Part shown: positions 2,022-52,939 of the stretch, one piece after another | Position numbering within the stretch: the first letter of the stretch is position 1 | Layout of the letters: each line of letters begins with the position of its first letter | Source of the DNA: Sipunculus nudus | Taxonomy: Eukaryota; Annelida; Sipuncula; Golfingiida; Sipunculidae | Length of the DNA stretch: 64,000 nt | Assembly (NCBI GenBank): GCA_026874595.1 | Contig: CM049314.1 | Location: 33,798,229-33,862,228 of the forward strand | Direction of reading: 5' to 3' | Made by a program: the position numbers and the translations under genes | Notes under the pieces: generated by a model | The model's database searches: none | The model's input: the letters and a program-made list of their open reading frames with translations, nothing else | Told to the model about the DNA's origin: nothing

Positions 2022-2266
2022 CTGATCTTCATTTGGCCGATAAGTTATTAAGTCCACGGTGTACTGGAGAATAAACGCCTCTCCAGGACGGAAGAATTGA
2101 CAGATCCCGTCCCCAAGTAGGACGTTGATTTGTTCGACGACACTGGATACTCGCTGAAGGAAAGCAGCTTGGTGACGCTGCCTGCAGTCAGGGGAGATGA
2201 AGGAAACAGCCGAAAAGAATCCCAAAACGGAAATGAGTTGAACGGGAGGAATGACGTCATCATGGC
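2022..2266 (-). CDS. Gene A exon 7: first half of the C-terminal domain (CTD)
   Basis: A 245-nt exon, phase 1 in and phase 0 out, the same length and phases as in genes B and D. It encodes DDVIPPVQLISV, then SPDCRQRHQAAFLQR, VVEQINVLLGDGICQFF, GEAFILQYTVDL and ends NEDQ. Two conserved cysteines (DC and IC) are present. The donor is CAG/GCAAGG, a GC-AG type. The family is not one I recognise. Confidence 0.82.
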
Positions 2267-5200
2267 CTATGGAGGACAAAAACTATAAATGATAGAACTG
2301 ATTATGTCCTACGCAAAAATGTACTCGGTGGCTATTATAGTTCATGTCAGTAGTTTAGATATTCTTTTTTGTAAGTTTCTATGAAAGCGTCTCCATATGT
2401 GTGAAAACGCACCGCTGTTTTGATATAAACAAAATGGACTGGTCATTTATCAGCGTCACATGATGTAAACGCATTAAAACTATTTAAATAATAAGCCTTT
2501 TAAATATTATTGTTTATTCATAATACGAAACTGTGCTGATAATAATCTTTAATGATCTTTTATACGAAAACTAAGCGTCACCCAAAATAGTCTAGAGCTA
2601 GGTGTTGATGATAATCATTAAGAGTCTCCTTTCGGTAAATACCCATAACTATTATCGTACCCTACTGTTATTACATATCACATTTTTCGTATTAGCCGTA
2701 ACGCCTCATCATATAGAACTGCCAACCTGCGGCAACTCACATCCATTTTACTTTGACAACTTCTCTATTTAATGCCTTTTATTCTGCAACTGTTCTCGTA
2801 CCTGGCTGAGGTGTTGATGCAGGAACAGTTGTGGTCTCAGGTGGTGCGGTTGTTACTGCGGGCGGTTGTGTAGTTTCGACAGGAGGTGGTTGTGTGGTTA
2901 CAACTGGCGTCTGTGTAGTTTCCACGACAGGTGGTTGTGTGGTTATTACGGACGGTTGCGTTGTTTCAACGACAGGTGGCTGTGTGGTTACCACGGGCGG
3001 TAGTGTAGTTTCAACGGCAGGTGGATGGGTGCTTACAAATGGCGGCTGTGTAGTTTCCACGACAGGTGGTTGTGTGGTTATTACGGGCGGTTGTGTTGTT
3101 TCAACGACAGGTGGTTGTGTAGTTACCACGGGCGGTTGTGTAGTTTCAACGAAAGGCGGTAGTGTAGTATCGACGACAGGTGGTTGTGTGGTTACCACGG
3201 GCGCTTGTGTTGTTTCCACGAAAGGTGGTTGTGTAGTATCAACGATAGGCGGTTGTGTAGTTTCAACGACAGGTGGTTGTGTAGTCTCGACGGCAGGTGG
3301 TTGTGTGGTTACCACTGGCAGCAGTGTAGTTTCAACAACAGGTGGCTGTGTGGTATCAACGACAGGAGGTAGAGTGGTTACGACGGGCGGTTGTGTAGTT
3401 TCAACGACAGGTGGTTGTGTAGTCTCGACGGCAGGTGGTTGTGTGGTTACCACTGGCGGTTGGGTGGTTTCAACGACAGGTGGCTCTGTGGTCACTACCG
3501 GCGGCTTTGTTGATTGCATAGTGGTTGGAGGTCGTGTGGTTGTTGTCGTCGTAGTTGTGGTTGTAAACACAGACCTAGGATCTGAAATGAGAATTCACGC
3601 AGTTTTATCCCTACACCGGACCTGCAAGGACGTGCATTGTTCTGGGGAATGCAATACTTATTCTCCATGCGCTTTTGGTTACTTATATATAAATTCTCTA
3701 TTTCTAATATAATATTCCCTTTTTTTTTCATATATATGATTGGAATATTGGTATTGGAAAAAGTATAAGTCTACTTTCAGAACTGAAAACTATAGTAGCA
3801 GTTCTTAACTACTTGCTCTGAGAAACATAAATCAATATCAAATATTCGTCATGAATAGATATATGTAAATGAAATTCTTAAATCCATAATAAAAAAAATC
3901 CCTAATGATCAAGGGCTATGGGACATAATAAGCTTCCTGTTGCATCATTGCCTTTAATTATTAACATATTTTATGGCACTAACAGTCGGATCCGGCAGGG
4001 AATGCGTAGGCCTCCTCTGTTTCAAAGGAGTGTCCATGCGTGAAGACTGCGAGTTGGACGCCGATGTTCACGTGATGAACGGTGTGCTGCCCAACTTCAA
4101 CATCAAGGGAGGTGGCGCTGTAACCTGACCCTTCAGCCACCGACCAGTCACTTACTATTGTATCTCCATCCAGTCTAACCCCATCAGTTTCGTCAGAGGG
4201 AACTATGATGCTTATGTGATGATCGTATTCAAACATGCCTTCCCTTGATGGAGTTATCCACGTGAAACGATTTGCGTAATGCTCAACAGGTGTCACTACC
4301 ATCATAAAAGGGTCAGAACCGGTGCCATCAACATCTGAACCTTTGTTGTATTGTACAACCAGGCACCCAGACGAGCACGTGATTCTGACAGGCACCTCCT
4401 CGTCTGGGACGTTCATTTGAAGGAACTGTCCAGCGTTCAGTGACTGTGTGCCAAAGGATCCCGCATCGACGAAAGTGTTATCCCTAGCGGCAACCACACG
4501 TACAAAATATCCACTGTTAAACCTATCGTTGATCGGTGGAACTATGAAGAAGGTCCCAAGCTGAGCTACCGGTGGAACAGCGCTGACTAAATGGTCACAA
4601 TAATTCCGGTCGTGAGGTACTTGTGCACATTCATGCCCAGAAAACACAACAATCGGTTTGTCCGATGTCACTATGGTACCCGTGTAATCATTGTCGTTAG
4701 ATCGTCGCCCGTACGTCTCAAACAAGTTCAGTGTCACTGTTTCAGTTGACTGATCCGGATACCTTATGGTAACTTGAGTGTCGTCTGCTGACGCCGACAT
4801 GTAAAACTGAGAACCCCTAGTGGAGAGTGGCGTGAACGAGGTCACTATGAATTCAGTGGCGTCCCCTGTCGGCGGAACTGCCAAAAACCCGTCAGCTGAG
4901 GGCGAGTACTGGTTTATACCTTGGACGACAAAGATCTGGTCAGAGGTCAAAAGGATAGCCTTTCTCTCTGTCTCACCAGATAGGCTGGTACGATAATTGG
5001 CACAGGGGAAGCGGATTCTTTCACCACTTGTTCTCATAACGGTTATTTGCTCATCAAAGCCGAGATCGGACCGTATCTGTGAAATATATCAAAGAACATG
5101 TAAAACCTATCCTGAGAAATGAAGATAAAACACAGTTGTACACGTTTAACCTAGTTTTCTAAGAAGAATTTACATAACGATGTTACATAATGTCAAAACC

Positions 5201-15342: not shown

Positions 15343-16632
15343 TTAGTTTTCACATTTTTTATTACTGAAATATTTATTTAGAACCCTTAAGCAGCGCCAC
15401 ACGCGTCCGTAATCGTTGAACCATTCCGTTTGAGTGAGAGTGAGGTCAGGGCATCCTGCGACAGGAGGCAGCACCGGTTGTTCGTAGTTTGCGTGATTTG
15501 CCATAAATACTGAGATCTCCCGGCCACAGTTATGATTGTCGTAAAACATGTAATTAGATGAGGCTGGGGTAGCCGTCGTGAATACTACCTCACCCTGAAA
15601 AGAAAGTAGTTAAAAGTATGTTCCGGTCCTTTCTGTGTGCAGAAAAAAACTGTTGTTTTACTTACGTATGATGACACACCGTAATTATTATTGCAAGTAA
15701 TGTAAAGCTGGAACCGGCAACATAAGGATATATAATAGCACAGACGTATTTGCAAACACAATGTAATAATATATTTTCACTTACATGTTGTTAAGGTCTT
15801 AATATCATGTTTAATATAAGTGTAATCTTGTTTAATGGTTTTGAATAACATAATTTTTTATGAAGACACTTTTTATTTAAACTACTCAAATTATTCCTCT
15901 TACAACGTTCCCGATGGTGTTTCTAGAAACTCTATTTATTAATGAAGAAGACTGACAGTACCGGGGTGTCGGATGTAATGGTACAGCTGGAACTTCTCTT
16001 AACAGTATATAAATGGTGCACGGATAAAATATTAAGATTTTTTAATTCGACTAACACAACAGGGAGCAGAAAACCATGATCACAGTAACCTACAAGGCAA
16101 TTTTTTAATCAGTAGGCCTCTCAGTTTATTTGGACATTCAGGATATTATTTGTGGGAAATAAACTATTCAAATGGTGTTCCCTTAAGGAATGTTAACATG
16201 CTAAGGTATTTGGTAAGTGAAGTGTTAAAAAAAACTTTTAATAACCGTCCCCGGTGTCTGACGTAAGACACAGACATAAACTGAGGGAGGGAAACATGTG
16301 TTTGATACCATTCAGCTTTTCATGGTGATCATCTGCCTAATGTGCAAAATTTATAAGTGGTCTAGGCATATATAACGAGAACCATACCCTTGTCGAGTCA
16401 TTGGCCATAGTCTGTAAGGTGACCCCATATTCCAAGATCCAAGCTTCCCCTGCCGGAAAGAAGTCGCAGAGGCTGTCACCTAACAGGAAGTTGATCTCCT
16501 CAACGACCTGAGCGGCCCTCTGCAGGAAAGAGTTGTAATGTCGCTGACGACAATCATCATCAATTTCCGCTGCTGATGTGAATGCGCCTCCAACTGATAT
16601 ATACTGCACAGGCGGGATGACGTCATCAGGAA
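15343..16632 (-). CDS. Gene B exons 7-8: C-terminal domain (CTD)
   Basis: Exon 7 (16632-16388, 245 nt) encodes VPDDVIPPVQYISV, DDDCRQRHYNSFLQRAAQ, VVEEINFLLGDSLCDFF and GEAWILEYGVTL. Exon 8 (15594-15343, 252 nt) encodes NHNCGREISVFMANH, NYEQPVLPPVAGCPDL and VWRC, then 14 extra residues to the stop. Five cysteines match the other paralogues; a sixth lies in the tail. The tail contains two AATAAA hexamers in the DNA, so it may be former 3' UTR that became coding. Confidence 0.87.
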
Positions 16633-19600
16633 CTGCATATATTAATGAATAAAAATTTAAACGTACGCGTGCGTGTGTGTTTGTGCGGATTACCTTGCAC
16701 CCTTTGCCAATTCAGAATAGTATTTATGAAACAGAATGATGGATTTATGTGCCACTGGTGACAAATTTGAATGACTGGCTATTTTTAAATTGTTGCCCGC
16801 TCTGGAAGCTGGTTATTAAAGCCATATCATCTCTTATGTAACATGATAGTAGTCTAGGTGTTAAACTATATATTTTTTTACTTTTCTTGCCTCTTTGGTC
16901 TACATCTGATCTTTGTGTTAAAGGATTTTATAAATTAGATGCATCCTTTCCGTCCCATAATGATGCAGATTATCTATATTACAAATTGTTGTAGCTCGAG
17001 TAAGGTAATTGTTATAATTAATATGATGTAAGGCTTTCCACAACCCATACCGTGTATGTGTTTAATGGTTTACCTGGGGCTGGAGTGGAAACCACAGTAT
17101 CTGTTGTAATTGGAAAAGTGGTTTCCTCTCCACTTGTCGATTCAATTGAAGCAGCAGTGCTTTGAATAACAGAGAAAGGTTCATCGGTCGTGGGTACTTC
17201 CGAAGCCGGAGGTTCAACAGTCGTCGCCCCTGTCAAACCAGGTGATTCATCAGTGGTCGCACCTGTGGCAGCAGGCAGTTCTGTTGTTCGAGTTTCAGTG
17301 GTAGTTATCTCTACCACTGTTGTGGTGACAGCGCCATAAGTTGTTGCTGGAAATGATGTCTCGGGCATTGTAGGAGTTTCAGTTTGTGTGACACTTACTG
17401 CCTCAGTAGCTTCCTGAGTAGCTGCTGGGGTTGATTTATCCGGAGTTGCAGTTGTTGGGTTTGACGTCGAAACTGCCAAATAAAAAAAAATGTTCCAGTT
17501 GTGATCTTTTGCACTGTTCAAGCAAGGGCAATAACTCATACAAAACCAGATATCCTTCAATTGAAAGTTTTTCCAAGATCACTTTTGGAAATGTGTGGCC
17601 CTTACTTTTGCTTTAATAATATCACTTATCCTATAAAATCCATGATTATATTATTTTCCAGTTTTCTTAATCTGAGTTCCAGAGTAGACGTGGGTGATTT
17701 GGTAGAACATCGAGCATTTAACCATTTCACCCTTTTGTTTCCACTCCCTCACGAAGCAACCCCTGCATAATTAAACCGTTAATTTAGTTTTACCAGCAAG
17801 GGATTATAATATAACACAAGAGTATACATGACACAGGTCGTGTTCGAATGTAAACATTTCACCATGATCTTTATTGCTTATTCTGGTTAATTCAATTCTA
17901 TGATTTTTTGGCAGCTTCAAAACCTAAGGAGTGACATTTGCTAAAAAAAACATAAGCAAAAGTGAAATCGGATCAGAATTAAGCTCAAAGTGATATCAGG
18001 GTAAAGTTTTACATTTTCAATCAAACTTTGTACTACAGGATAAATCGATTAAATATAAAATATAAAACATTACCCACCAACAAGATAATTTAAAAACACG
18101 AAATTCAAAAATGAATTTTTTTACATTTATATATAAATCTTACCTGCGACACCCGCGGGGAAGCCATAAGAATGGCTTGTGGAGCCCCCGTGACCGTACA
18201 CAAACACTGCCATGTTGACTCTGGGATCCACGTGATGCACGGAATGCTGGGAATGAATCACCTGTATATATGTGGCGCTGTATGGACTTCCTGTTACAGT
18301 AGCCCACTGCGTCCCGAGACTTGCTCCGTTCAGTCGCACTCCTTCCACGTGATCTGTCGGTGCAATAATACTGACGTAATTGTTAAACTCGCCAGATACG
18401 CCTCGCCTCGGTGTCATCCAGGAAAATCTGCTCGCGTACCGTTCAACAGGTGTCACCACTAAACTAAATGGATTTGTTTTAAGCCCGTCTAGATCTCCCG
18501 CAACATTATACAGCACGACCAGGCAACCGATGGAACACGTGACAAAGACCGGCTCATCTGTTTTGTCATTGTGAATTTCCCAGAATTCCCTGGTATTCAG
18601 GTTTCTGAATCCATGACCAGTAATATATACTTCAGTTTTTCCTATTGCCACCACTCGGAGCTGGTACCCAACAAATGGTGATCGGCCCCCTATCGGCGGA
18701 ACTACGAATTCTGTACCGAAATCTGCTACAGGCGGTACGTTGGTGATCATGTGACCACAGGTGCCGACACCTACCGGAACGTGACCGCATTCATGGCCGG
18801 AAAACACCGACACTGGTTTATCAGACTCTACGGTTGTCCCCGTAAGGTCCATATCGTGAGAGAATAGACTGAACGTGTACAGCGGTTGCAGGGTGTGTAC
18901 GACAGTTTCTGAGGTTGGTAACGTCACTAAAACTGTCGTCGATGGTTCATTTGCCGCTATGAAAAATTGTGACAAACCAGCTGTTTGCGCAGGCGCATAA
19001 GATGCCAGAACAAAATTAGTACTCTGTGGCCGGAGTGGCGCCACAAGAAATCCGTCGGCGGCTTGACTGGCGAGGTTTAAGCCATAAACAGTTATATCGA
19101 CGTCGGCTTCTATCTGGACTCCTTTATTTTCTTCGACTTCGCGGGTCGCACGGACAGCGTGACAGGGGAGGTCTATTGTTATACCAGAGTCCCTGGTTAC
19201 CACGTAAGTATCATAGCTCTGATATGTAGTTACCTTTATAAAAAAAAAAACAAATATGATTAACATTTAGATATTATGGTCCATATAAAGTAATCAAAAA
19301 CATTTTTCAAACGAACGTGGATTATAACAAAAAAACCAAATCAAAGAACTTAACATTAATACAATACTCGAATTATATCCACATACATGTATTAAAATAA
19401 TATTTAATGATTGGGTCTAGACAAACAAACAATTGTTTTCGCTACAGAATGAATATATAACGAAAATACAGTTTTGTTAGGCAAAAAAATAAGGTTTGCT
19501 TCTCAGGCACTTTTTTCAAAAATCAATGCGGGTGGGCGGTTTTTTTATTATATTTTTTTTTTGGTATGTTTCGATGAAAATGTCAACTGAAAAGTGAAAA

Positions 19601-22830: not shown

Positions 22831-23173
22831 TTAAAAATAATAACAATTCCATTGTCGGAGAAACGGATTAAACGATCCGGGCCGGGTCAGAACCAGATCT
22901 GGACATCCGTCGACAGGGGGCAGCACTGGCTGCTCGTAATTCTGGTGATCCTCCATGAACAAGGAAACATCCTCGCCGCAGATATGGTTCTCCAGGAAGG
23001 TCGCTGACGTCACTGCCGGTAGATAAACCGTGAACGAGACGTGTCCCTGGAAACAAGTTCATTTTTACATGAGCATCAGACTTGGTTGTGTCTAAAGTGA
23101 CATGAAGAGATTACTATAAAACTGATAATATGGGATTAGCACAGGATCGTTATTGAATTGATTAAATATACTC

Positions 23174-23432: not shown

Positions 23433-24960
23433 CTTCTTTCTATTTTATCACTGTCTAGCATTATAGTAACTGACACCGGGTAATTATTGCAGATTCAGTG
23501 ATCATCTAGAGTTGAGTCCCTGAAGCAATACAACTAAATGATTAATAGAGATTGATATATTCCACTTAAATTTTCACGGCAGAGCAATTTAAAACTAAAG
23601 CCTAAAACTAAATGGTTTATATTAATCCGGTCACTGTATTGCGATGTTTTCCGAGGCACAATGATCCATAACCACATAACGGTAGTCAGTAAGAATATCT
23701 CAAACTTTAATTTTATTTCGTGAAAATTAACCCGATTTACGTTATTCCTCGCTTTTCGATCTTCAAACCTAGCATGACCTCCCTTAAAAAAAAAACACGC
23801 CCCTAAGAGGACCAGTATATCCTTATAATTTCTTTTCCGTGTTCATGATACGCCATGGCCGATTTTGTTATACGATTTTGTCGAAAATGGGTTGCCTTGC
23901 AGAAGGATTGCCCATTCGACTATTCTCTCATATGACAGGCTAAAAATTGAGTCCATTTGAACCCGACTTCCCGGGACAAACTAATATCTAAAGAAGAAAA
24001 CTACTCTGGGATAAATTTCGTTCGTATTCGTTCCCCTTTAAACATCAACGTTAGTATCATTTCATTTACTGCGTTTGAGGTAAGATGAGGACGGAACTGA
24101 CTATAAGCTCCGCCTCTTTGACCTAATAATGCTAATGAGCCAGTCAAACACTCCTACACGTAAGGCTTTCCATGTCTTTGGTTGCGAGAACTGTTTATAC
24201 GACTAAGACAATGGTGACGTCACAAAGACATCGCATAGGTCGGTTGCGTATATAAGTCGCATTGACTGACGTCATCAGCTGAATTTGCAGTATCTCTTCT
24301 CCAATTAAGAATGTGCACCGCAATTCATTGTGAAGTATTTTGCTAAACTTTGAATTGTCTCATACAAATTCAGTGCAAGGTAAGACAAAAATGTTCACAG
24401 GGCAGTGGCCAGAATAACTCCGGCAACTTTTGGGCTAGAATTTTTCATACTGTCTCCTTTGTATCAAGTCATCCCGTTAAAACATGCGGACATAGGGTAC
24501 AGGTACACACTACATTGGTTTTGTTTGGAAGAGCCGCCCAAGTTATGCAAATCGTGTGTGTGCTTAACAGTTAATTGACTGTTTACATTGCCAACGGTAA
24601 CTTGATTGGTTACTCGCAACTTCTCTGCTCATGATTATTAATTGAATGAATATGCGACTGATGCCACATTGAATTCATATTTAAGTTAATAAACCAAAAC
24701 TTATGATAAATCCTCTCATACCTCGAATGCGTTAAACATAACGATTGTGACGTCATATTCGAGGACCCAGGCCTCCCCTGGTGACATGGTGCCGCACATA
24801 TCTTCCTGTAGCAGAAACTGGATCTGTTCGACAACCCCTGCCGCACGTTGTAGGAAAGCGTTACGATGCCGGTCTTCACAGTCCCCTGACACCGGCCCGG
24901 TGGCAGTGAAGTAATCATCCACGGAGATTTCTTGTATAGGAGGATCCACATCGTCTGTAC
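22831..24960 (-). CDS. Gene C exons 11-12: C-terminal domain (CTD)
   Basis: Exon 11 (24960-24722, 239 nt, phase 1 to 0) encodes DDVDPPIQEISVDDYF, GDCEDRHRNAFLQRAAG, VVEQIQFLLQEDMCG and GEAWVLEYDVTIV. Exon 12 (23046-22831) encodes GHVSFTVYLPAV, NHICGEDVSLFMEDH, NYEQPVLPPVDGCPDL and RQWNCYYF-stop. Five cysteines in total. No known domain comes to mind. Confidence 0.88.
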
Positions 24961-27900
24961 CTATTAACAGTTTTGGGTCAAAGGTCAAATCATCAGTCAT
25001 CATTTCAGTAAACAGAAATTAAAGTAAAGACATTTTTATTATAGAATATATATAGAATTGCATAAGAAACTTCGTGGTCAAACACAAGTTCTGGTGAACA
25101 CAAAAGAATTTTAATGATATAAATATGACAGGAGAATAATAATACGTAAACTTAAAAAAAAAAATTACCATCAAATAGCAATAGGATAAAAATACAAATA
25201 GCAATAAGAGAAATAAGACATACATGTAATATTGTCAAATAAGGAGTTGTCACGAAAACATCATGGTTCCCTTCAAAAGACGTTCGCATGGTAACTTAAC
25301 ATTTAAAGCAAGAGTGTAACTTAACATTTCAAGCAAGAGTCGGACTCCCCTTTCTATATAAACAAATTTACTTCTCCTCACAATTAGTTGATATATAAAG
25401 CTTAGAAGCAGGTATATACTGGGTAATAATACATCTGGGTAGAATTAACTGGACCTTAACTTGAGTATTACAAGAAAAAAATAATCAGGTTGTGCACAGT
25501 GATTTAATAAGGGGCAATGGCATCTCACATAATCGTTCGGTCGGGCCGTTGAGACATGCATGATCGTTCAACTGACTTTTCTCTGAAAGTTTTGTTTCTA
25601 CACGATTAACTCCTGGCGTTTACAGAGCGTCTCTGTATTATCATGGAAACACTAAATTCTAATCCTTATCCAATATTTGAACATATGACAGAAATCTGAT
25701 AATAGGACCATCTGCTTTCTTACCTGGAGGCAGTGTTGGTGACGGTCTGTCCGTTGTTACGGGCTCCGCAGTTGACAATGGTGGAGTGACCAACTCAACA
25801 GTCGTCCCACTTACTGTCGTCGCACCTGCTATCGTGGCTGGCTCCGTTTCTGGTTCTACAGTTCCTGCCACGGTCGTGGCCGGTTGAGTCTCTGGTTCTA
25901 CAGTTCCTGCTACGGTCGTGGCCGGTTGAGTCTCTGGTTCTAGAGTCCCTGCTACGGTCGTGCCCGGTTGAGTTTCTGGTTCTACAGTTCCTGCTACGGT
26001 CGTAGCCGGTTGAGTCTCTGGTTCTACAGTTACTGCTACGGTCGTGGCCGGTCGAGTCTCTGGTTCTACAGTTCCTGCTACGGTCGTGGCCGGTCGAGTC
26101 TCTGGTTCTACAGTTCCTGCCATGGTCGTCGCCGGTTGAGTCCCTGGTTCTACAGTTACTGCTACGGTCAAGGCAGGTTGAGTCTCTGGTTCTACAGTTC
26201 CTGTTACGGTCGTGGCCGGTTGAGTCTCTGGTTCTACAGTTCCTGCTAAGGTCGTGGCCGGTTGAGTCTCTGGTTCTATAGAACCTGCTGCTGTCGTGGC
26301 CGGTTCCGTCACTGGTTCTACCGTTGTCGCTGCAGCGGTCGCGGCAGGTTGAGTCTCTGGTTCTATGGTCGCAGCTGATGTCGTTGCCGGTTGAGTCTCT
26401 GGTTCTATAGTCCCTGCTATTGTCGTGGCCGGTTGAGTCTCTGGTTCTACAGTTCCTGCTACGGTCATGGCCGGTTGAGTCTCTGTTTCTGCAGTTCCTG
26501 CTACGGTCGTGGCAGGTTGAGTCTCTGGTTCTACAGTCCCTGCTATTGTCGTGGCCGGTTGAGTCTCTGGTTCTACAGTTCCTGCTACGGCCGTGGCCGG
26601 TTGAGTCTCTGGTTCTATAGAACCTGCTGCTGTCGTGGCCGGTTCCGTCACTTGTTCTACCGTTGTCGCTGCAGCGGTCGCGGCAGGTTGAGTCTCTGGT
26701 TCTATAGTCGCAGCTGATGTCGTTGCCGGTTGAGTCTCTGGATCTATAGTCGCAGCTGATGTCGTTGCTGGTTGAGTCTCTGGTTCTATAGTCGCAGCTG
26801 ATGTCGTGGCCGGTTGAGTCTCTGGTTCTACAGTTCCTGCTACGGTCGTGGCCGGTTGAGTCTCTGGTTCTGTAGTTGCTGCTATGGTAGTGGCCGGTTC
26901 CGGCCCTGGTTCCCGGGCTGCTCCTGTTTTCATAAATTGGAATGAAATATAAATATTGATAGATAGATTTACCAGCACAGCTGAACAGAGAAGAAGAATT
27001 CAAAATGATATATCATGATCATGAACGCCCTATTAATCATAATGTTGTTGTTTACGTATGAAGCGTGATTATATTAACAGAATATCTTTAAAATGACTAT
27101 ACTGAATTTTATATCAGTAAATGGAACCTACAAGCATACAAATTCGTTATGAAGATTTTTCTGGTCTTTTCATTCACACTTCCCGATGAAGAAGCAAGCA
27201 AAGTCGTATTGATCAGACTTTCAGTGCCTATATCTGCATTAAACAGTTGTCAAAAAAGAATGGCAAAATAACATGTAAGATGTACATGAGTCAAAATCTG
27301 GCGATATATTGGTAAAGTAGCTGTGGCGGCGAATCGTTGAGCATGATAGCATTTTGGAAATAAAAAGAGGTCCGAACAAGAGATTTACCTAGCGGGCCGG
27401 CCGGATAAGCGTAGGCTTCCATCGTAGACGAGTCAGAGTGACCATAAGCAAAGACTCCTATTTTAACGCTCGGGTCACTGTGGTGGATGTGGTTTTGAGG
27501 GAGCCATATTTCCGTATAAGCGGTGCTGTAACTTGTTCCGGGCACCTCTGACCACGTGGCGTTGAGCGGGGCACTGTTAAGACGAATTCCTTCTGCGCTG
27601 TTTGTAGGTGCCACAATGCTCACAAAGTGAACATACGGCACAAAGTCGGCACGGTCGAACGTGTACCATGACATGCGGTTACGATAACGCCCAATAGGTG
27701 TCACCACTAAAGAGAAAGGGTCAGTGGTGTTAGTATCTCCATCGCCTCCTTTGTTCAGCTGAACCACTAAACATCCGACGGAACAGGATACCTTTAAAGC
27801 CTGCTGCGTGTTTGGCACCTCAAGCTCCCAGAAACCCCCAGCATCAACAATTACCCCACCAACACCCTCGGCGTTTACCTCAGTGGCGTTCCATGCGGCA

Positions 27901-30900
27901 ATGACGCGAACTATGTAACCTGCCGAAGCTGACCTGCCCCCTATCGGTGGCACAATGAACTGCGTGCCGTGTTGAGAGACTGGAGGAACCCCGCTGACAA
28001 TGTGTTCCTGGTATCTTAAATGAACAGGAACCTGTGCAGCTTCGTTTCCTGAATACACGGCGATAGGTTTGCTTGAAGTGACGATGGTTCCCGTTAGATC
28101 CATATCAAGCGACATAACACCGTATGTTTCGTATTTCCGTAATACAACCTGTGTTGAGTTGCCGTCCGGCAGAAGTATATCCACCTGGATATCGTCATCA
28201 GCGCCGGCTAGGAAGAACTGGGAGTGCCGCCCGGGGTTTGTTAGCGGGTAGTAAGATGCTAACACGAAACGAGTGGCGTCCGGGCTGAGACGAACCGCAA
28301 GAAAGCCGTCCGCGGACCCAGTCATCTGGTTGATCCCTTGGACAACCAGTTCTTTCTCGGATGTTACGATGATGGCTTTGCTCTCCGGCGCCATGTTCCT
28401 ACCCGTCCGGTATTCTCCGCACGGAAACTGTTTTGTAATTCCGTGGTCTGCCCGGAGAGAATACACACCATGGGCGGATAGTGCCGAGTCAACCTGAAAT
28501 GCGGAAATAAAAAAAACAAGGGTCACTCGCAACCTCTTGCACACTTTCAACACTAAATGCAGATTAGTATGTATGTAGAATTTACACCCCCAGGTGAATC
28601 GGTGAATTGTTTTACCGTTGATCTCACAGAGACCATTAAACGCCATAAAATTTTTAACTAAAGATTAGAAAATGAAAGATGATGTCCTATTTATATAATG
28701 TACATTTACATATCTCATTTCTTATATTCCAACGCGGATAAATGTACTATTTTTATCACACATCTATGAATCTTCTAGCTTTGCTTATGTTCGTTCTTTA
28801 CATTCCAACTGTCAAAGCTGGTTGCATATTTGGTAATACTTTCTGGTAAAATAAGTTCATGTATAAATCATTTGTAACAGGAGTTATAAATGCAAATGTT
28901 GCGTTACATAAATATTAAAAAAAGAAATAATGGCAAATGAAAATCATAATCAACCTTAATCACAGCAGATGGTGCCTCCGTCATAAAGAACAGATCACAA
29001 ATACCATCCGGTGAACCTCCGACGTTATAGTTAAATATAGCTACATAAGTGTACTTATCGTCACCTGTATCTTCTGAAAAAGAAATAGTCAAGCCATTAC
29101 TTAAATGAGCCTGAAGTCTGTTAACTGAAGATAATTCTTGATTTTTTTTTATAAAAAAAAATAGGCCATAAAACGCGGTTCCAACAGCTAAAAAGATGGT
29201 GGTTTTGTTAATGTCCACCTGTTAATAACATGTGGGGGCCGCCAAAGTAATCCAAACACATTGAGCAAGGAAATCTGGCGGAAATTTTCGCAACTAGTAT
29301 GCTCTTTAAACTTCCGCACAAACGCAACCACCTTATATTACATGGCTTTTATGTTTATCAATTTCGGCACATGTGCCATTTTTACCAACAGCTTGTTAAA
29401 AGACAAGTTCAAACATAAGAAACCCAGGTGCTATAAGAACAATTCTTAATTGGAAATACCTACAGGCCATTAATAAACACGCAGCGTAAGCCAGAAATCA
29501 CATACAGAAAAGGTGGGTAAATAACTGGTTTTAAAATAAAGATGATGATAAGCGTATATCAATTACAGCGCGAACATGCGTGGTCTGAGTATTGTACATT
29601 TTAATATCGGTTAAAATATATAGAACATGATTTTTTTTTTAATTTTCATAATCATACTGTGTAAGGTGTTCTCAGGGCCTTGTAGATATTAAATCACAAA
29701 TATCACTATGAAAAAAAATATAAACTGAACAACAGTCACATCTTTTAAGTTCATTATTAAACATATTACAATATAATGCTTGTTCGATATTTACACTTGA
29801 TGTATGATCGGGACATCGACTAAATTAATACAAATACAGTTTTTAAAAAGATTCATTCAACATGACCACAAAGTCGAAAGTCCGTGATAAGGTCTACCTC
29901 CTCAGAAATTGGACCATACATAATTACCGATTTTGACGCCTGATGTGCTCATATAATCATACTGTGTAAGGTGTTCTCAGGGCCTTGTAGATATTAAATC
30001 ACAAATATCACTATGAAAAAAAATATAAACTGAACAACAGTCACATCTTTTAAGTTCATTATTAAACATATTACAATATAATGCTTGTTCGATATTTACA
30101 CTTGATGTATGATCGGGACATCGACTAAATTAATACAAATACAGTTTTTAAAAAGATTCATTCAACATGACCACAAAGTCGAAAGTCCGTGATAAGGTCT
30201 ACCTCCTCAGAAATTGGACCATACATAATTACCGATTTTGACGCCTGATGTGCTCATCTCAGAAAAATAGCACCAGGATTTACGCGTTGGATAAAAATGC
30301 TTTTTAAAATACCCCAGATTGCACCAGATACAGTCTGAATTTTCATAAAATTTCTATACCATGTTCCCAAATGACCACCCTTTCGTTTGAGGTCGTTTCT
30401 ACTCAAAACGGACCCCTTCCTTTTACGCACTGTGGGACGGCTGGAAGTATCGTTTTCAACTGTTAAACTTTAAATCAAAATTTGTAACTTTTCAAGGAAA
30501 CGACTTCTATGTATTAAGAAGCAGCGATGCATTGTGGGGGCAAACCTCGACGGACACAAACCATAGACCACAAACCCCTCTTGTGAGTCCGCTTCTGCGC
30601 AGTGTGCTCAAATGCCCTCCTATTCGACATTTCCGGCCTCGGCCCTGCCCCATTCGAGGTCTGGCTATATGCCCCCCCCCCCCCCCCAAAATATATTTCA
30701 CCTGCCCCTGATGACATTAATGCAGTAGTAGAACATCAGGGGTAAGTTAGTTAATGAAGCTATATGGCAGCACATCCATTACAATGCATTGCTTACCTGT
30801 CATGTGACATGGCAAGTGTGTTCTATATTTAAAAACCGGCACAGATATCTCCTATATGTGATATATTGATGTCCATTATTTTTTTCTTTGACACTATATA

Positions 30901-33900
30901 CCATATTGAGGAATCTTATAGTTATTTTCGCATCTGTTATGAATGACAGTCATATTGCTATCATTATTGTTATCACAGGAGGGTTTGTGTTCATTCCCAT
31001 TCGTGTGCGTGTGTGTGTTTGTGTGTTGTACGATTGTTCACAATATAACTCACGCAGTCATGAACGGAATCTCATAACATTTTCAGGGCATTTCGGGAAT
31101 GGGTCAGTGAAGCATCGGGAAGATTATCGGTGTGGATGATCTGGGTCCAGGAAGGACAAGGAATATTTACAAATGTTCAATCAATTATGCACGAATGACC
31201 CTGGAAGTATGGTCCGAAAAGGGGATTCGTCCCACATTAAGGACCGCCAACATGGCGGAGGCTTGCATTCTTTAGAATGAAGATTTCTGGTTATCCTTCT
31301 TCTTAGAAGAATTATTAATATCATTATTATTATTATTATTATTATTATAAAAAAATTATTATTATTATTATTATTGTTAATATTATTATAACACTAATTT
31401 TTATAAGTGCATCACCATGGATGAGCACTACATCATTGTGTTGGTTCTATTGGTTGTATTGGTTTTACCTGAATAAAAACTTCATTTATTCACATCAAAC
31501 GAAGTCTACTAATGAGGCGGTTTCTTACCAGTTGTCCCAGCGGGGTAAGCATACGCCTCCATTGTTGACTGATCGGCATGCCCGTACGCGAAAACACCGA
31601 GACCTACCCCTGTCTCAATGTGTGCTACGTAATTCTCAGCTTCGAGGACCGGCAGATAGGTGGCGCTGTAAGATGTCCCTGATACAGGCGTCCAAGTCGA
31701 TGCCACTTCTGCACCGTTCATTCTCACTCCTCCCGTCTTGTTTGTCGGAGCAATAATACTGACCACGTGGTAATAAGCGTGAGTATCATTACGATTTGGC
31801 GTGTGCCATATTAAACGGTTCGTATACCGTTCGACAGGGGTCACCACTAAGCTGAATGGGTCGGAGGTGTCTGCTTGGTTCTCCCCTCCCGTATTGTATT
31901 GCACCACTAAACATCCTACCGAGCAGCTCACTCGGAGGGACGCTTGGCTCAAATTGACCGCCAGTTCCTGAAATTTACCAGCGTCCAGAACAGCAGGCTC
32001 AAACCCATCAACCCAAGTTACCGTATCGTCTGTTGCGGCAATAACGCGAACCACATACCCAGCGTTAACATCTCTGCCACCTACCGGCGGGACCACGAAC
32101 TCCGTGCCTAGGTGAGAAACAGGCGGGACCGCGCTGACCATATGGTCCAAGTATTTCCGGTTCACGGGAACCTGTCCACACTCGTGGCCTGAATACACAG
32201 CAATAGGTTTGTCTGATGTAATGATGGTTCCCGTCAAGTCAGCGTCGGTAGATTGGATTCCATAGGTTTCATAGCGCTTCAGGGTTACCAGTGTGCTGGT
32301 CTGGTCGGGAAGGCTGATTTTCACCGTGACGTCATCTTCTCCTCCGGCAAGGTAGAACTCTGAGGCGGCAGGTTGTGACGTCATCGGAGTATATGACGCC
32401 AGTACAAAATGAGTGAACTCTTCTGTGAGGCGGAGGAGAAGAAAGCCGTCTGCTGATCCCATCATCTGATTGATGCCCTGGATTACGAGCTGCTCATCTG
32501 AGTAAATGATGATGGCTTTCTGTTCAGCTTTATTACTGAGTAGCGTTCTGTACTCGGCGCAGGGGAACGACACCGTCACACCGGAGCCCCTGCTCAGAGT
32601 AAACGTCTGCTTGACGGACAGGGCTGTGTCTATCTGTCAAGATATAAAAAAATAAGTACAGTGACACTTCAGTTATCTGAATGTCAGTGGCGATGGGAAT
32701 TTTTATAAAACCGAAAATATGATAGGATATCTTATCTATTTAAGCATAATATATTGATTTTTTATCCAAAGTTTCTATGATAAAAAAACGTAGGTCACAA
32801 GGATATCTGTGAGAACGGACAAACTTCATCCTCTGATAAAATGATGTCGCAGTGGTGACTCTAAGTGTGTCCTTACTAAGCTACACGAGGATTGGCCCAA
32901 TGGTCTATGATTAACTTTTTTTGCATGAAAACATTGCTCATAATTTTATTTTTCTGGGACTTTTTCATACACCTCATGAGTGAAAAAAAACCCGACAAGT
33001 ACACCCGGTAGGTACGGACGGCCGTTTTACCTTGACGTTCGCAAGACGTTCCTCTGTGAGGAAGTACAGTTCACACAGGCCTTCAACATCCCCCCGCCTG
33101 TTGTAATTGAACACTGCCACGTACGTGTACCTGTAAACGGTGACCTCCTCTGGAAACAGAAATGAGCATTTACTCTTGTGTAACTTTATACCCCGGTGAA
33201 ATTGTTCCTAAAATAAATTTGGTGAATGGCGATATGCGTGTTTTGCTTGGTACGCTAGGAAAATGTATTGAATATTTAATTTAATTTTTAGTTAAAATAT
33301 TTTTTTTTCTTTTTTATGCAGCTGCGTATTTCATAGTATTTATGAGATAATGCTTTTCTTTGGCCATCAAAATCAAAACAGAGGGATGGGGATTCACTTG
33401 GATTGTTTTGATAATTTCTGAGCGCGGCAGTTCAGGTTATCTGGCAAAAACTTTAATCAAATGTATTATTAGATGGTTTTATTAATGTTAAGTGATGCAA
33501 ACTCCTGATCAATAAAGTAAAAACATGTTTCTCTGCTTGAATATAGATTTCAGTACAATCCTTGCGTGTGGAGTGAGAATTCTATGAAATGTATCTACTG
33601 CTAGAAAATTTAGTGTGTATTATTACTGCACTGTGTGTATATCGTCCATCTGTTACCACACTATTGGACACGTAGCGACACCTACCGGCAGCACCAGCAG
33701 GGAACCCGTACGATTCCATGGTGTATGATTCAGAATGGCCGTACGCGAACACCCCTAACCGGACATCCGGTTCTGTGTGGTCGACGTAGTTCATATCTGA
33801 CGTTACCGGCATGTACGTTGTACTGTAAGGGGTACCAGCGACCTCTGTCCAGTTAGACGTGACGTCCATCCCGTTCATACGGACACCGCCTGTTTTATTT

Positions 33901-34889
33901 GTTGGTGATACAATGCTGACGTAGTCTCTGTAGGGGATGAAATCCTCACGATCTGGCGTGAACCATGACAGCCGGTGTATGTACCGCTCGATGGGTGTCA
34001 CCACTAGGCTGAAAGGATCCGTGGTTTGATCGTTGCTTTCAGCAGCGCCACCTTTATTGTACTGTACCACGAGGCAGCTGATAGAACACTGAATGTGCAC
34101 TGACGAATGCGTCGGAGATACCTGGTATTCCCAAAACTGGCCTGCGTTCAGCGTTTGGTTAAACTGTCCGCCGATGGTAGCGCCAGTGTCGTCTTTCCAG
34201 GCGATCACTCGGATCAAATAGCCAGCATTCTCAGATCGGCCACCTATCGGCGGAACGATGAACTCCTTGCCAAGCTGGGAGACGGGGGGTATTCCGCTGA
34301 CCATATGATCAAGATACTGTAGATAAGTCGGTACATGCCCGTCCTCGTGTCCCGAGTACACTGCGATTGGCTTGCTGGAAGTAATGATGGTTCCTGTGAC
34401 GTCATAATCATGAGATTGTATACCGAATGAATCATAACGACTTAACGTGACATGGGATGTGCTCTTATCTGGCAGGGTGATGTTCACCTCGATGCCGTCT
34501 TCGGCTCCGGCAAAGAAGAACTGGGAATACCCAGGTGGCGCTGTCATCGGCGTGTAGCTGGAGAGGACAAAGTGGGTGGAGTCTTCTGTGAGTGGCAGCG
34601 CGTGGAATCCGTCCGCACTACCAAGCAGCTGGTTGATACCGTGTATGACCAAGTCGGCGTCAGATTTGATGATGATCGCTTTCTTCTCTGTCTTGTTGCT
34701 GTACCGCGTCCGGTACTCCCCGCACGGAAACGACAAGGACAAACCGGAAGCCCGGGTCAAACTGTAACTTCCGTTGACAGATAGAGCTGTATCCACCTAG
34801 ACACCAATCAATATGTTATTTTTATAAATATAGGTCGCATCATTCATATTGAAGGCGTGCACTGATAAGGTAGCATTAAAATAAATTTG

Positions 34890-44698: not shown

Positions 44699-47600
44699 GT
44701 TGTTTCAGTAGATCCGTTGTAGGTTTTGAGTCTGATCTTTTATTTGTGTAATTCATCACTGTATCCAACACTGGTGGGTACGCAGGTTTTGTAGCCGTAT
44801 AGGTGGAGCCACAGGTAATTGCTTTTTATTTCAGGGTTTTTCTGTTAAATACCTTTAATATCTGTATAAATTTACTTTTTACGCTATAAGTGCCTGCTGT
44901 TATTTTTTCAGTATAGTTATGCACACCTCGTATTTGCAAAAAAGGTATATTGGTATTTGTTTGTTTTGCATCACACACAATTGCCATTTCAACCCATAAT
45001 GTGACATTTATTGTAACAGTTATGTTATTACAATAAAATTTTTTAGAGGCAGGGCATCGCAACCCTTATGTAATAATTATACCAGTAGTATACATTTTAA
45101 CATTTGATGTTTAAGTAACATCGGATTTGGGCAGTGTGCTCAATAATCATCATAGTATTGCATATTATTACAAGAAAGTTATGAGAAACAAAAAAAAAAT
45201 CCAACTCCTAATGTAATTGTTATTTCAGAAGTGTAATGCCCATTATTTGCAGTGTTCAGGGATTGTCAGAAAAAAATGCATTCACAACCTCACTTATTAT
45301 ACTTGTATCTATATTATAATTGCCGGTAGTGCCACCCAACCGTCGTCGCGCTACTCCTGTGTGATCAGGCAAAAAAAAAACCCCGTGTTTAGTCTTGAAT
45401 TGTCTGGGACGATGCCAAGTGTGTCCCAAGGTGGTAATTTTCCTAAATTATCCCATTTGGGGTCTCTCGCAACGACATCTTACAGAAACCTGGCTATTTA
45501 ATGGTACCCAGAAAGGTGAAAACGACGAAGTGGGGCGGACCTATTCCAAAGCAAGAAAGGGTAATTTGCTAGCAATAATTAATATAATAAACATGTAATC
45601 TTTCAATTTGAAAACTGCATATATAAACATGTTTCCGTCATGCCCTAGCTGTCCATGGGGCGGAAGACCCGTCTCCCCCGACCCTCCAGATCGAGCTGAC
45701 GGGCGACTTCAAGACGACTGACGGGAGCTCGATCACTCAGACCTGTACAAACAAGTACGTCAGCGGCCTCCAGACAAGCGCCGTCAATCAGATCGTCCGT
45801 GTCAATTCGCTGATAGGGAGCTCTCTGTGTACCACGACCTCTGACCTCGCTCTCACCAGCGTTTCAATCTCGATCAACACTGTTGGATCAACCGTGGGTT
45901 ATATTTTTCATATGAACTAACCTACTTTTAGAAGGCACTGTAAAGTGGTTATACTGTTTTGGAATCTATGGCGTTGTTATATATTGTCCTTTCATTAATC
46001 TTAAATCAACTCAAATTCTGTTTTTTTTTGTTCGATATTTCCATTGTCATCGGTTGACCCTCCTTTCTTCCGACAGGAGATATTGTGTTTATAGCCGTTG
46101 ACTGTTTTTTTTATTTACTTAGTCTGCTAGTAATTTAAATCAAATTGGGATGAACATTTTTTTTTATTAAACAAGGGTAGGGTAACTCTGTGGAAACATC
46201 CTATTGAATTTTGGAGGATTCTTCCTAAATAAAAGACAGGGTACTTTGTTTTTGTTTCCCTACCAAGAAGGGGGGTCTTTCAATTGTATAACGGACAGAG
46301 TTAATCTGTGATATAACCAACGTGTGTGTGTGAACCGTTGCAAACGCCTACATGGAAATTTAATCAAGATCATGATAATAATTCGGATCAGGCGGTCCAG
46401 AACTTTCTGTTTTACAATATGCGCACCTTTCCCTAATTTGCTTTGCATTTATTTTATCCCTATATTCGAAGCATATCTTAACTTTTGCAGTAAGTTTTTT
46501 ATATATTTCTAATTACCTTCAGTAAAGCTTTATAGTCTCAGTGTTTCTTTTTTTATAATGTTTCGTTTTTGTTGTTTTTGTTAAATTTTCCATCGCCCCC
46601 AGCCCATCTTCATCATCTCACTATCTCGAAATTTATTTCAAAAGAAAACCCTGGCATCTTTACATCTCATGATACACAAACGCACACAAAGTTAGTAATT
46701 AGTTGTAAGCTATCGCATATTTGTTTTATTGTTAGCTTTAGCAAGCTTTCTTTTCTGTTTTACGCTTATCAGTATTATAACTAGAATACGGGTAGTCGAC
46801 AAGCGACTACGTGTATCCGCCTAAATCAGAGTGGAACGGGTGAAGTGAGGCATTGATTGAGTGGCAAGGGAAAATTGAGTGTTGCATATTAGCATGGATG
46901 TCTGCAGCCAAATTGTGTATGTAGGTTGCCCCACATACCACAAAATCCAGAAAGCCATCCAAGTTGTATACATATAAAAAATTTAAGGCAGATAAGACAA
47001 ACCACTACATGTATATGAGTGATTTTAGCCCGTGGCAGACAAACAGATGGACGCTGAGCAAAAATGGTTGCAGGTGACGCCACCAGTTTTGCGTATGATA
47101 AAGAGCTATGTGGGAACTATACACATGCAAAACTTTGGCCCAATCGGTCAAACGATTCCCAAGATATGAGCTTGGATGTCTGCTGCATAAACTAGAATGC
47201 AGGTGGCGCCACCTGTCATAAAATCAAGAGCGCTGTCGGGGATGTATAAACCTGCAAAATTTTAGGCAGATATGTCAAACCACTGCCGAGATATGAGTGA
47301 TTTTATCCCATGGCAAACAAACAGACAGGAGCTGTGCAAAAATGGCTGCAGGTGGCACCACAAGTTTTGCGTATGATGAAGAGCTATGTGAGATCTATAC
47401 ACATGCAAATTTTTAGCCCAATCGGTCAAACGGTTCCCGAGATATGAGCTTGGATGTCTGCAGTGTAAACGTGAATGTAGGTGGCGCCACCTGTCATAAA
47501 ATCAGAAAAGCTATCCAGGATGTTTACGCATGCCGAATTTCAGGTGAATTAGTCTAGTCACTGCAGAGATATGAGTGATTTTAACCCAAGGCAGACGAAC

Positions 47601-50244: not shown

Positions 50245-50452
50245 GGCTAAATCAGTGTTGTCCTTCGGGATGCCTGGTCTCGAGGCCCTGTCACCTCAAC
50301 AAGTTAACGGATGTGCTCGTGAGGTATCGGCGTACCTACAAAACCACTCTAACTGGGGTTCCCTAATACCGCCCACTGACGGCTGCCCGGATGTCACGTA
50401 TGATCCCGCCATGTTCACGGAGCAAGCGAGACTGTGGAAATGTGATAACTGA
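43470..50452 (+). CDS. Gene D: small secreted protein made of the CTD alone, 174 aa
   Basis: Three coding exons on the plus strand: 43470-43542, 45649-45893 and 50246-50452, joined 525 nt (174 codons plus stop). Exon 1 starts after a strong acceptor (TTTTCCCCTAG at 43458-43468) and its ATG gives MPKMKLTECTYNILSGFLVY and onward, a plausible signal peptide cut near VHG. Exon 2 is 245 nt, phase 1 to 0, the same length as in A and B: TGDFKTTDG, SITQTCTNKYVSGLQTSA, VNSLIGSSLC. Exon 3: GMPGLEALSPQQVNGC, NHSNWGSLIPPTDGCPD and ARLWKCDN-stop. The five CTD cysteines are conserved although the rest is divergent. The signal exon is the least certain part. Role unknown. Confidence 0.78.
44190..44575. repeat. 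~75-85-bp tandem repeat in gene D intron
   Basis: Five diverged units sharing GTGACGGCAGTGATGTC, GAGACAGAAGTGACGCT and GGTGTGCGTGACGG. GC-richer than the surroundings. Overlapping minus-strand ORFs through it are by-products. It lies between gene D exons 1 and 2. Confidence 0.75.
46890..49425. repeat. 280-bp satellite array, about nine units
   Basis: Period 280 bp (281 once). Unit marks: GAGATATGAGCTTGGATGTC, GTAGGTGGCGCCACCTGTCAT, GAGATATGAGTGATTTTAACC and AACAGATGGACACTGTGC. The first two units (46890-47450) are diverged; those from about 47450 to 49240 are nearly identical, so the array expanded recently. Each unit carries the palindrome GGTGGCGCCACC. The 70-codon minus-strand ORFs repeated every 280 bp are reading-frame shadows. 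It fills intron 2 of gene D. A single-copy tail (49420-49610) ends in a (GGC)n run. Confidence 0.92.
49640..50245. repeat. (TTA)n-rich tract up to the gene D exon 3 acceptor
   Basis: About 600 bp dominated by ATT/TTA repeats with TTC interruptions. The last block (50210-50245) runs straight into the splice acceptor AG of gene D exon 3, so the repeat itself supplies the T-rich tract. Confidence 0.9.
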
Positions 50453-51180: not shown

Positions 51181-51214
51181 TATGGCAAAAATGCAAATTC
51201 ATGTGGATCCGGTC

Positions 51215-52939
51215 TCAACAAGACCACTCACGTCGGGAGTCGCCAAAATTTGGAGGGTTCCAGTCGATCGGGGAACAGCCGTCGATAGGAGGGATGATGT
51301 CGCCGTCCCAGTTGTTATGGTCCCTTGTGTAACCGGAAACCTCTAGTCCGCATGCGTGAATATCTGTCAGTGGTCTGATCAGAGCGCCTGGCATTTCGAA
51401 TATAACCTCAGAATTGGCCTATAAAAAAGACATACGAAAATAAAAAATAAAGCAAAAGTATATTCACACATGTAAAATGTCTTTTATAAACATTTTGCCT
51501 AAAACACCGCAGAAAAAGCTGAACAGTCTGGTCATTTAAACACCGCCTTAAAGAGGAAACACTTTTTATGTGTTCTCTCCTGTGTCTGTTTGATGGTTTG
51601 TCTTTTATCTGATTTCGACGATACTTGGATGAGTAGTGGGATAATTTACAGGGAAAGCCCCATAATATTTTATGGGATTTTATAATAACGCGGTAGTTCC
51701 AGTTGTCTATTGGTCTGTTTCCTCCTTTGCGAATAAAAGAATTGTAGTGAGTGTCATTCTAGATATATTGATTAAATCTCAACAGGAAGACTCTTGTCAT
51801 AACAAATATATGTATAAATATCTCCTGAAATAAAGGAACCTATTCAGGCAGTGTACCGTTCCAATATGCAAATCAAGATTTTTCCGTCACTTATGACCTA
51901 AGTGCATTCAGGTGGGCTGATACAGACACACCATGCCAGTACACTTCTGATTGAACCGGTCGAGATATTGGCTTAACATGCGAGGTGCCTGTATCCCATT
52001 GAAAACAAGCACTGTGGGTAATAAAATTGGCAACTCACCGATGTATTTTCTTCTATCTGCACGTCAGCCTGAGCACTGTTGAGGCGGACGTCGTTGAAAC
52101 CGTTACAAAGCTGCTGACCGATCATGTTGTTTAACTTAGTCATCATGTAGATGGCGCTGTTCCTCAAGGCGTCCTCGTACTGAGCTCGGCACTCATCGGT
52201 AATCACAATCCCTCCTCGGGTCCACAAGGTCCCGTTAACTCCGATTTGGAAGACAGGGATAATTGGATCCTGAGCTTAATGTTAAAAAGGTGTTAAATAG
52301 CTGATAAATAAACCATTTAAACAGAATAATTGGTTCAATGTTAAATAAAATATAAAGATTAATCTTTAAAGCTAATGTTTAATGAAGCGTTCAAATAACA
52401 GTTAAATAAACCACTATAAGCGGATAAAGAGTTTAATGTTAGATAAGCTATTTGAAGGAGCCCATAAGTTTTTGCGCCGTGTTTTAGATAATTTAAATAT
52501 CTTGAAACTTTCATTAAGTAAGCTAAAAAAAGTGCCCTATTCCACGGTACATTTTATTCGTTTTGTGTATGTCCACGTGTTAATAATACAGGGGACCCGC
52601 TGAAATAACTTAGCCATTAAATTACTAAAAACCCATAAAGTGTGTTGAAGAAACTATTATTCCTTGATCATAGGTATGGATTATGGAGCATGGATAACAC
52701 CTCCATTTTCAAATATATGCCGACTAATTCATCCTACCTGAATTTTAAGCGAAACTAAAATGATACATATTTTTTATGAGAATTTGATTTGCGTTAAATA
52801 ATGATAAACAGCCTAGAAATTCTAAAAAATCATGTGACTGCTATATATCACTTACAAAATGTTTACTATAGTTAATGCTTGTCTCACCTGTGACACCAGT
52901 GGTCAGCACGGCCACTACGATGAGGCCGTAAACATTCAT
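51215..52939 (-). CDS. Gene E: small secreted protein made of the CTD alone, 163 aa
   Basis: Three coding exons on the minus strand: 52939-52888, 52274-52039 and 51418-51215, joined 492 nt (163 codons plus stop). Exon 1 encodes MNVYGLIVVAVLTTGVTA, a clear signal peptide with cleavage expected before QDP. Exon 2 (236 nt, phase 1 to 0): DPIIPVFQIGVNGTL, VITDECRAQYEDALRNSA, LNNMIGQQLCNGF. Exon 3 (phase 0): VIFEMPGALI, IHACGLEV, DHNNWDGDIIPPIDGCSP and RREWSC-stop. All five CTD cysteines align with A-D. Exon 2 could also begin five bases later (CTCAG/GATCC), but the earlier AG keeps the phase. The gene lies tail to tail with D (about 760 bp between stops). Confidence 0.88.

What the first reader, a model, noticed from the sequence alone, without database searches (positions are those of the whole stretch)
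2022..52939. A five-gene cluster sharing an unrecognised five-cysteine C-terminal domain
Genes A, B, C, D and E all end in (or consist of) the same ~150-residue domain over two exons with the same phases (1 to 0, then 0 to stop). First half: a DPxxPPVQxI start, a Cys before a helix-like RxxxxxFLQRAA stretch, INxLLGxxLC, and GEAWILEY in A-C. Second half: a Cys, an N-H-x-N-Y/W segment, PPVDGCPD and a final WxC. Five cysteines are fixed even where the rest has diverged (B adds a sixth in its tail). I cannot match it to a named domain. An odd cysteine count suggests one free for a disulfide between chains, as in mucin-type polymers; that part is inference.
Basis: partly seen in the sequence, partly recalled or inferred. 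Interest (0 to 1): 0.88.

Follow-up and report, generated by a model that had tools for sequence, protein, structure and literature searches.

The report
Orphan cysteine-rich domain of mucus-like proteins
A small secreted-protein domain with five fixed cysteines, which matches no domain in the libraries searched, caps a cluster of mucus- or glue-like animal proteins and also occurs in small proteins of its own; its job is not yet known.

Summary
Genes A-E share one homologous ~150-residue domain in two exons (phase 1 to 0, then 0 to stop); its five cysteines are invariant in the 10 complete copies found in this genome. Gene A's second exon lies 1.1 kb outside the window, and the cluster has at least seven members, with one more far along the same contig and four on contig C17: 12 copies by exon 2. 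A, B, C and three copies outside the window lie behind an IgGFc_binding (PF17517) exon and a Thr/Pro-rich frame; E is signal peptide plus domain. The domain has no credible match in Pfam, NCBIfam, PHROGs or PDB sequences. AlphaFold2 on half-domains gave low confidence, so the fold is open. The odd-cysteine argument for interchain disulfides is weak: A, C and P have even totals. Best reading: a terminal module of secreted mucus or adhesive glycoproteins, joined to IgGFc proteins through phase-1 introns; nearest known design, frog-glue PRIT. Binding or assembly function is inference. Presence in other animals was not testable here.

The parts
3984..5076 (-). Gene A: IgGFc_binding (PF17517) exon, phase 0 to 1
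   Evidence: Pfam E=8e-54; splice sites
2802..3581 (-). Gene A: Thr/Pro-rich (TTQPPVVE-type) linker exon, phase 1 to 1, 780 nt, no Cys
   Evidence: tandem repeats
2022..2266 (-). Gene A: CTD exon 1 (GC donor); exon 2 lies outside the window at C9:33796949-33797152
18144..19233 (-). Gene B: IgGFc_binding exon, phase 0 to 1 (acceptor at 19233 or 19218 not settled)
   Evidence: Pfam E=3e-43
17074..17472 (-). Gene B: Ser/Thr-rich linker exon, phase 1 to 1, 399 nt, no Cys
16388..16632 (-). Gene B: CTD exon 1, phase 1 to 0
15343..15594 (-). Gene B: CTD exon 2, with a sixth Cys in its tail, ends in stop
27389..28493 (-). Gene C: IgGFc_binding exon, phase 0 to 1
   Evidence: Pfam E=7e-40
25724..26923 (-). 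Gene C: Thr/Pro linker exon of about 25 copies of a 42-nt repeat, phase 1 to 1, 1200 nt, no Cys
24722..24960 (-). Gene C: CTD exon 1
22831..23046 (-). Gene C: CTD exon 2
31529..32633 (-). X2: extra IgGFc_binding exon upstream of gene C, phase 0 to 1; no linker or CTD of its own seen
   Evidence: Pfam E=3e-51
33686..34796 (-). X3: extra IgGFc_binding exon upstream of gene C, phase 0 to 1; no linker or CTD of its own seen
   Evidence: Pfam E=4e-46
45649..45893 (+). Gene D: CTD exon 1 (upstream exon not found)
50246..50452 (+). Gene D: CTD exon 2
52888..52939 (-). Gene E: start codon and signal-peptide exon, phase 1 donor
52039..52274 (-). Gene E: CTD exon 1 (acceptor chosen by phase)
51215..51418 (-). 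Gene E: CTD exon 2

Best explanation
The CTD is a real domain family of secreted animal proteins that the searched libraries do not recognise. It is carried as a two-exon cassette whose 5' phase (1) fits behind a signal-peptide exon, a mucin-like linker exon or an IgGFc exon. Shown: homology of the copies, fixed cysteines, splice phases, purifying selection in the one pair that could be measured, and the order IgGFc domain, Thr/Pro tract, CTD along the DNA. Inferred: the long proteins are secreted mucus or adhesive glycoproteins in which the IgGFc domain and the CTD are folded, disulfide-containing ends on an extended O-glycosylated spacer. The CTD serves as the terminal binding or assembly module, and the small stand-alone CTD proteins (E; probably D and the C17 copies) are partners or modulators through the same module. 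The linked copies most simply go back to one joining of the cassette to an IgGFc-linker gene, followed by local duplication.
For: PF17517 in A, B, C, X2 and X3 at E 7e-40 to 8e-54. Linker exons of A, B and C of exactly 3n nt, phase 1-1, without Cys, built of 42- and 45-nt repeats in C and A. P, Q and N, outside the window, have an IgGFc exon with a phase-1 donor, a Thr/Pro-rich frame and the CTD in the same order. 13 invariant columns including 5 of 5 Cys in 10 of 10 complete copies. dN/dS for A versus P is 0.185 in the CTD and 0.33 in the IgGFc exon. The linked CTDs form one side of the CTD tree (96/93). The IgGFc domains of the CTD-bearing genes plus X2/X3 form one side against eight from the C10 cluster (100/100; 16 of the 59 matches were used). 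E has a clear signal peptide. No PF17517 match lies beside D or E. Context from papers: IgGFc domains plus disordered, predicted O-glycosylated repeats make frog glue (PMC11237159, abstract and passages); IgGFc-type proteins are reported in oyster mucus and expressed in settlement-stage oyster larvae (PMC6337334, passages).
Against: No transcript, protein, localisation or glycosylation data; the joining of exons into one transcript is inferred from order, strand and phase. Fold unknown: AlphaFold2 mean pLDDT 59 and 48.5 on half-domains. First exons of A-D not found. Cysteine parity does not fit one shared free thiol. Exon 1 of the C17 copies Ra and Rb is weak on its own in the profile scan (E 6e-5 and 0.007) and rests also on place, phase and Cys spacing. 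The direction (gain of the cassette versus loss of the head in D and E) is not shown: the tree is unrooted and D, E, Ra and Rb are long branches. The eight C10 IgGFc exons have no CTD in the 70 kb read, so the CTD is not needed for IgGFc proteins in general.
Confidence: 0.6

Rival explanations
1. The CTD drives covalent polymerisation: an unpaired cysteine forms interchain disulfides as in gel-forming mucins.
For: Five invariant Cys, odd, in the stand-alone protein E; mucin-like linker. [quoted passage not shown] they concern FCGBP's own domains, not this one.
Against: Cys total of IgGFc plus CTD is even in A, P and C. No Pfam match of the CTD to a cystine-knot or VWD domain (0 of 10 copies). 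PMC10285406's title reports a non-covalent FCGBP-MUC2 interaction (listing).
Confidence: 0.2
2. A diverged member of a known fold, for example a SEA-like or other ferredoxin-like beta-alpha-beta-beta-alpha-beta domain of the kind that often flanks mucin tracts.
For: The two weak half-models read strand-helix-strand plus strand-helix-strand in order; position beside mucin-like tracts; several exon-2 starts resemble G-x-V-V-x (seen by eye).
Against: No Pfam hit to SEA in 10 of 10 copies at E up to 10 (HMMER's filters drop most matches above 0.1). hhalign against a small SEA set gave probabilities of 0.1-0.2%, inside the range of 40 column-shuffled controls (0.6% at most). That test is weak: the set was five sequences, four of them fragments. 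SEA has no fixed five-Cys pattern (recalled).
Confidence: 0.15
3. An immune-recognition family: cluster members diversify to bind microbes at mucosal surfaces, with the stand-alone CTD proteins as soluble lectin- or opsonin-like factors.
For: Tandem gene cluster, high divergence between paralogues (A versus D 23%, A versus Rb 18% identity), 59 IgGFc matches in the genome.
Against: The one pair with measurable synonymous divergence shows purifying selection in both domains; no lectin-type Pfam match; no expression data.
Confidence: 0.15

Closest known systems
PRIT proteins of frog skin glue (tomato frog Dyscophus guineti; PMC11237159, abstract and passages read)
   Same: Secreted; IgGFc-binding domains (IPR035234) with Ser/Thr- and Pro-containing disordered repeats predicted to carry O-glycans; VWD lost; gene cluster; IgGFc exon duplication.
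   Different: The passages read mention no five-Cys C-terminal domain; the repeats are 18-residue units with Pro-Gly motifs, here about 14-residue Thr/Pro units in C; up to several IgGFc domains per chain there, one per chain by exon phase here (inferred).
FCGBP (human IgGFc-binding protein)
   Same: N-terminal IgGFc_binding domain; mucus context.
   Different: Followed by VWD modules (PMC11237159 passage; detail recalled); no VWD hit in the IgGFc exons and CTDs scanned here; no FCGBP match to the CTD among PDB sequences.
Molluscan IgGFc-binding-like proteins of mucus, adhesive and shell matrix (PMC6337334 and PMC7333891, passages; PMC6003135, listing only)
   Same: IgGFc-type annotation in secreted mucus or adhesive material.
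   Different: Architectures named in the passages are VWD, EGF or lectin based; no CTD of this kind is mentioned in the passages read.

Membership tests
IgGFc_binding (PF17517) proteins | Match to PF17517 above its gathering score of 25.6 bits (genes A, B, C and exons X2, X3) | tested here: met
   A 183, B 149, C 138, X2 175 and X3 158 bits
IgGFc_binding (PF17517) proteins | Same domain present in D and E | tested here: not met
   No PF17517 match in D and E exons; of the 59 genome matches, those of this region fall on Q, P, A, B, C, X2 and X3, none beside D or E
PRIT-type glue proteins | IgGFc domains plus disordered, O-glycosylated Ser/Thr/Pro repeats, without VWD | tested here: inconclusive
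   IgGFc exon and Thr/Pro repeats present; glycosylation and secretion not testable; full exon set of A-C not known
SEA domain (PF01390) | Match to the SEA profile | tested here: not met
   0 of 10 CTD copies list PF01390 at E up to 10; hhalign within shuffled range
Gel-forming mucin C-termini (cystine knot, VWD, C8, TIL) | Pfam match to any of these domains in the CTD | tested here: not met
   0 of 10 CTD copies match any of them
Gel-forming mucin C-termini (cystine knot, VWD, C8, TIL) | Interchain disulfides in the secreted protein | not testable with these tools
   needs non-reducing gels of the protein

The most novel reading that the evidence does not exclude
The CTD is a new fold, or a new way to assemble mucus or bioadhesive: a portable two-exon disulfide module that joins IgGFc-mucin chains to each other or to a ligand, with stand-alone CTD proteins (D, E, C17 copies) acting as linkers or chain stoppers. 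At gene C, three IgGFc exons in the same phase lie before one linker and one CTD and may be used one at a time, giving alternative heads on one mucin stalk.
Probability: 0.17. Interest if true: 0.68.

Novelty: new variant of a known kind. Interest (0 to 1): 0.45.

Why it matters
IgGFc-domain proteins recur in mucus and bioadhesives of several animal groups, and how such chains are held together when VWD modules are absent is a fair open question. A conserved terminal domain found both on the long chains and in small free proteins gives a concrete, testable candidate for the assembly or binding step, and would be a new entry for domain databases.

Tried and rejected
SEA relationship: suggested by the secondary-structure order of two weak half-models, tested by Pfam scan and by hhalign with 40 shuffled controls, not supported; the SEA profile itself found one match in this genome. 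Odd-cysteine argument: counted across proteins, not uniform. Tandem IgGFc domains in one chain at gene C: exons X3, X2 and C all run from phase 0 to 1, so they cannot be spliced to each other in frame. Bacterial or viral relatives: none confirmed by tblastn (41 pattern matches in genome contigs, 20 in viral contigs). Organism: the molluscan haemocyanin profile found no match, but no control genome rang either, so that is no evidence; destabilase-type lysozyme exons are present; species not identified. Fold search with the half-models was not run because their confidence is too low. Weak genome hits not followed: C16:23734220 (E 0.0024) and C17:43973138 (E 0.0098), both with stops inside, and C3:44696226 (E 0.38, one stop). 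Left out before counts: Rc and Rd (exon 2 only) from the 10-copy alignment; 43 of 59 IgGFc matches from the tree.
Full report
WHAT WAS CHECKED. The window is part of a 1.43-Gb genome in 153 contigs (C9:33798229-33862228). The genome's size and the introns and repeats of the window are those of an animal genome; the species was not identified.

BLAST of the exon translations against all window frames of at least 25 residues recovers the CTD halves of A to E (exon 2 of A excepted) and nothing else convincing. CTD exon 1 enters in phase 1 and leaves in phase 0; exon 2 runs from phase 0 to the stop. Acceptors are AG in 10 of 10 first exons and 12 of 12 second exons. Donors of exon 1 are GT in 8 of 10 and GC (CAG|gcaagg) in A and its paralogue P, which makes the GC donor a shared feature and not a misreading. 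The second exon of A is not in the window; it lies at C9:33796949-33797152.

MORE COPIES. Four exon-2 queries to the whole genome converge on the same 12 copies: A, B, C, D, E; P and Q just before A on C9; N at C9:1.305 Mb, with an IgGFc exon about 6 kb before its CTD exon 1; and four on C17 at 49.516, 49.541, 49.571 and 49.805 Mb (Rb, Ra, Rc, Rd). A query with exon 1 of B finds only the six IgGFc-linked copies. Exon 1 is known for 10 of the 12; those of Ra and Rb came from a profile scan with E 6e-5 and 0.007 and rest also on place, phase and Cys spacing. Rc and Rd were left out of the full-length alignment. Three weaker hits, all with stops inside, were not followed. The genome tool scores only its best candidates, so 12 is a lower bound.

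HOMOLOGY AND CONSERVATION. In the alignment of the 10 complete copies, 13 columns are invariant, five of them the cysteines; across the 12 exon-2 rows, 8 columns are invariant, three of them cysteines. A profile of the six IgGFc-linked copies finds E, D, Ra and Rb with E = 3e-19, 4e-16, 2e-13 and 7e-8 (database size set to 20,000), and hhalign of linked versus stand-alone copies gives 99.5%. A versus P: dS 0.53, dN 0.10, ratio 0.185 in the CTD, against 0.33 in the IgGFc exon; the other 5 of 6 CTD pairs tested are saturated at silent sites. The CTD is thus a maintained protein domain, at least in that pair.

ARCHITECTURE. A, B and C have an IgGFc_binding exon (phase 0 to 1), a Thr/Pro-rich linker exon of exactly 3n bases (780, 399, 1200 nt; phase 1 to 1; no Cys), then the CTD. 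The linker of C is about 25 copies of a 42-nt unit. P, Q and N also have an IgGFc exon ending in a phase-1 donor and a Thr/Pro-rich frame before the CTD. E is a signal-peptide exon (MNVYGLIVVAVLTTGVT) with a phase-1 donor, then the CTD. The first exons of A-D were not found by a simple signal-peptide-exon scan. Two further IgGFc exons, X2 and X3, lie upstream of C; no Thr/Pro-rich frame or CTD of their own was seen in the frame list or the profile scan, and with the IgGFc exon of C they form a clade (100/98). Because all three run from phase 0 to 1, they cannot be strung together in frame: they are either separate genes with unseen ends, relics, or exons used one at a time.

ORIGIN. IgGFc domains of the CTD-bearing genes plus X2/X3 separate from the eight read in the C10 cluster with full support (16 of 59 genome matches used). 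No CTD was found in the 70 kb of that C10 cluster. The linked CTDs form one side of the CTD tree (96/93), with long branches on the other side. The simplest account is one joining of the two-exon cassette to an IgGFc-linker gene through a phase-1 intron, next to stand-alone copies such as D and E; the reverse (loss of the head in D and E) is not excluded.

WHAT IT IS NOT. No credible match in Pfam-A (10 copies; the only listing is one copy at E 0.17, also 23), NCBIfam (best E 0.013, to an unrelated enzyme), PHROGs (best E 0.011, one copy) or PDB sequences (best E 0.36, 0.32 and 0.55 in three searches, unrelated chains). No relative was confirmed in bacterial and archaeal genomes or viral contigs. 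No animal proteome was available, so presence in other animals is untested. Papers: searches for IgGFc with mollusc, bivalve, pallial mucus, or oyster and mucus, and for PF17517 and IPR035234 (one search listed 15 of 408), list no paper whose title or abstract start speaks of such a C-terminal domain; three papers were opened, in abstract or passages only.

STRUCTURE. By my reading of its rule the predictor takes only uninterrupted window translations, so the halves were folded apart: exon 1 mean pLDDT 59, exon 2 mean pLDDT 48.5. Both read strand-helix-strand. Together this would be the ferredoxin-like order, seen also in SEA domains (recalled), but a profile comparison with a small SEA set stays within shuffled controls. 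The fold is open.

THE CYSTEINE ARGUMENT. From the splice acceptor onward, A and P have 5+5, B 5+6, C 3+5, Q 4+5 and E 5 cysteines in IgGFc plus CTD, and the linkers of A-C none. An odd total is therefore not general, and the inference of one free interchain cysteine fails as a family rule. It remains possible for E-type proteins.

FUNCTION. The nearest described design is frog-glue PRIT: IgGFc domains separated by disordered, predicted O-glycosylated repeats, without VWD (PMC11237159, abstract and passages). IgGFc-type proteins are also reported from oyster mucus and from settlement-stage oyster larvae (PMC6337334, passages). By this analogy the long proteins are most likely mucus or adhesive glycoproteins, and the CTD a folded end module for binding or assembly; these last steps are inference.

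Noticed in passing
31529-34796 (-): Two extra IgGFc exons (X2, X3) upstream of gene C, same phases as C's own IgGFc exon and one clade with it; possible alternative first domains on one linker and CTD.
   Followed up: partly
2022 and C9:33787 kb: A GC-AG intron (CAG|gcaagg) shared by paralogues A and P between the two CTD exons.
   Followed up: yes
47013-49408: Array of about 8.6 copies of a 280-bp repeat (93% match) inside the intron between the two CTD exons of gene D.
   Followed up: no
62740-63477: Minisatellite of about 23 copies of a 32-bp unit, 98% match, open in several frames.
   Followed up: no
29648-30257: A tandem duplication of 305 bp with 100% match: very recent or an assembly artefact.
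   Followed up: no
C10:27340001-27410000 (L039-L045): A second cluster of eight IgGFc exons with Thr-rich frames but no CTD; frames in L043-L044 look like a retroelement (by eye, not searched).
   Followed up: partly
whole genome: 59 PF17517 matches on nine contigs, some with stops inside: a large, partly decayed IgGFc expansion.
   Followed up: no
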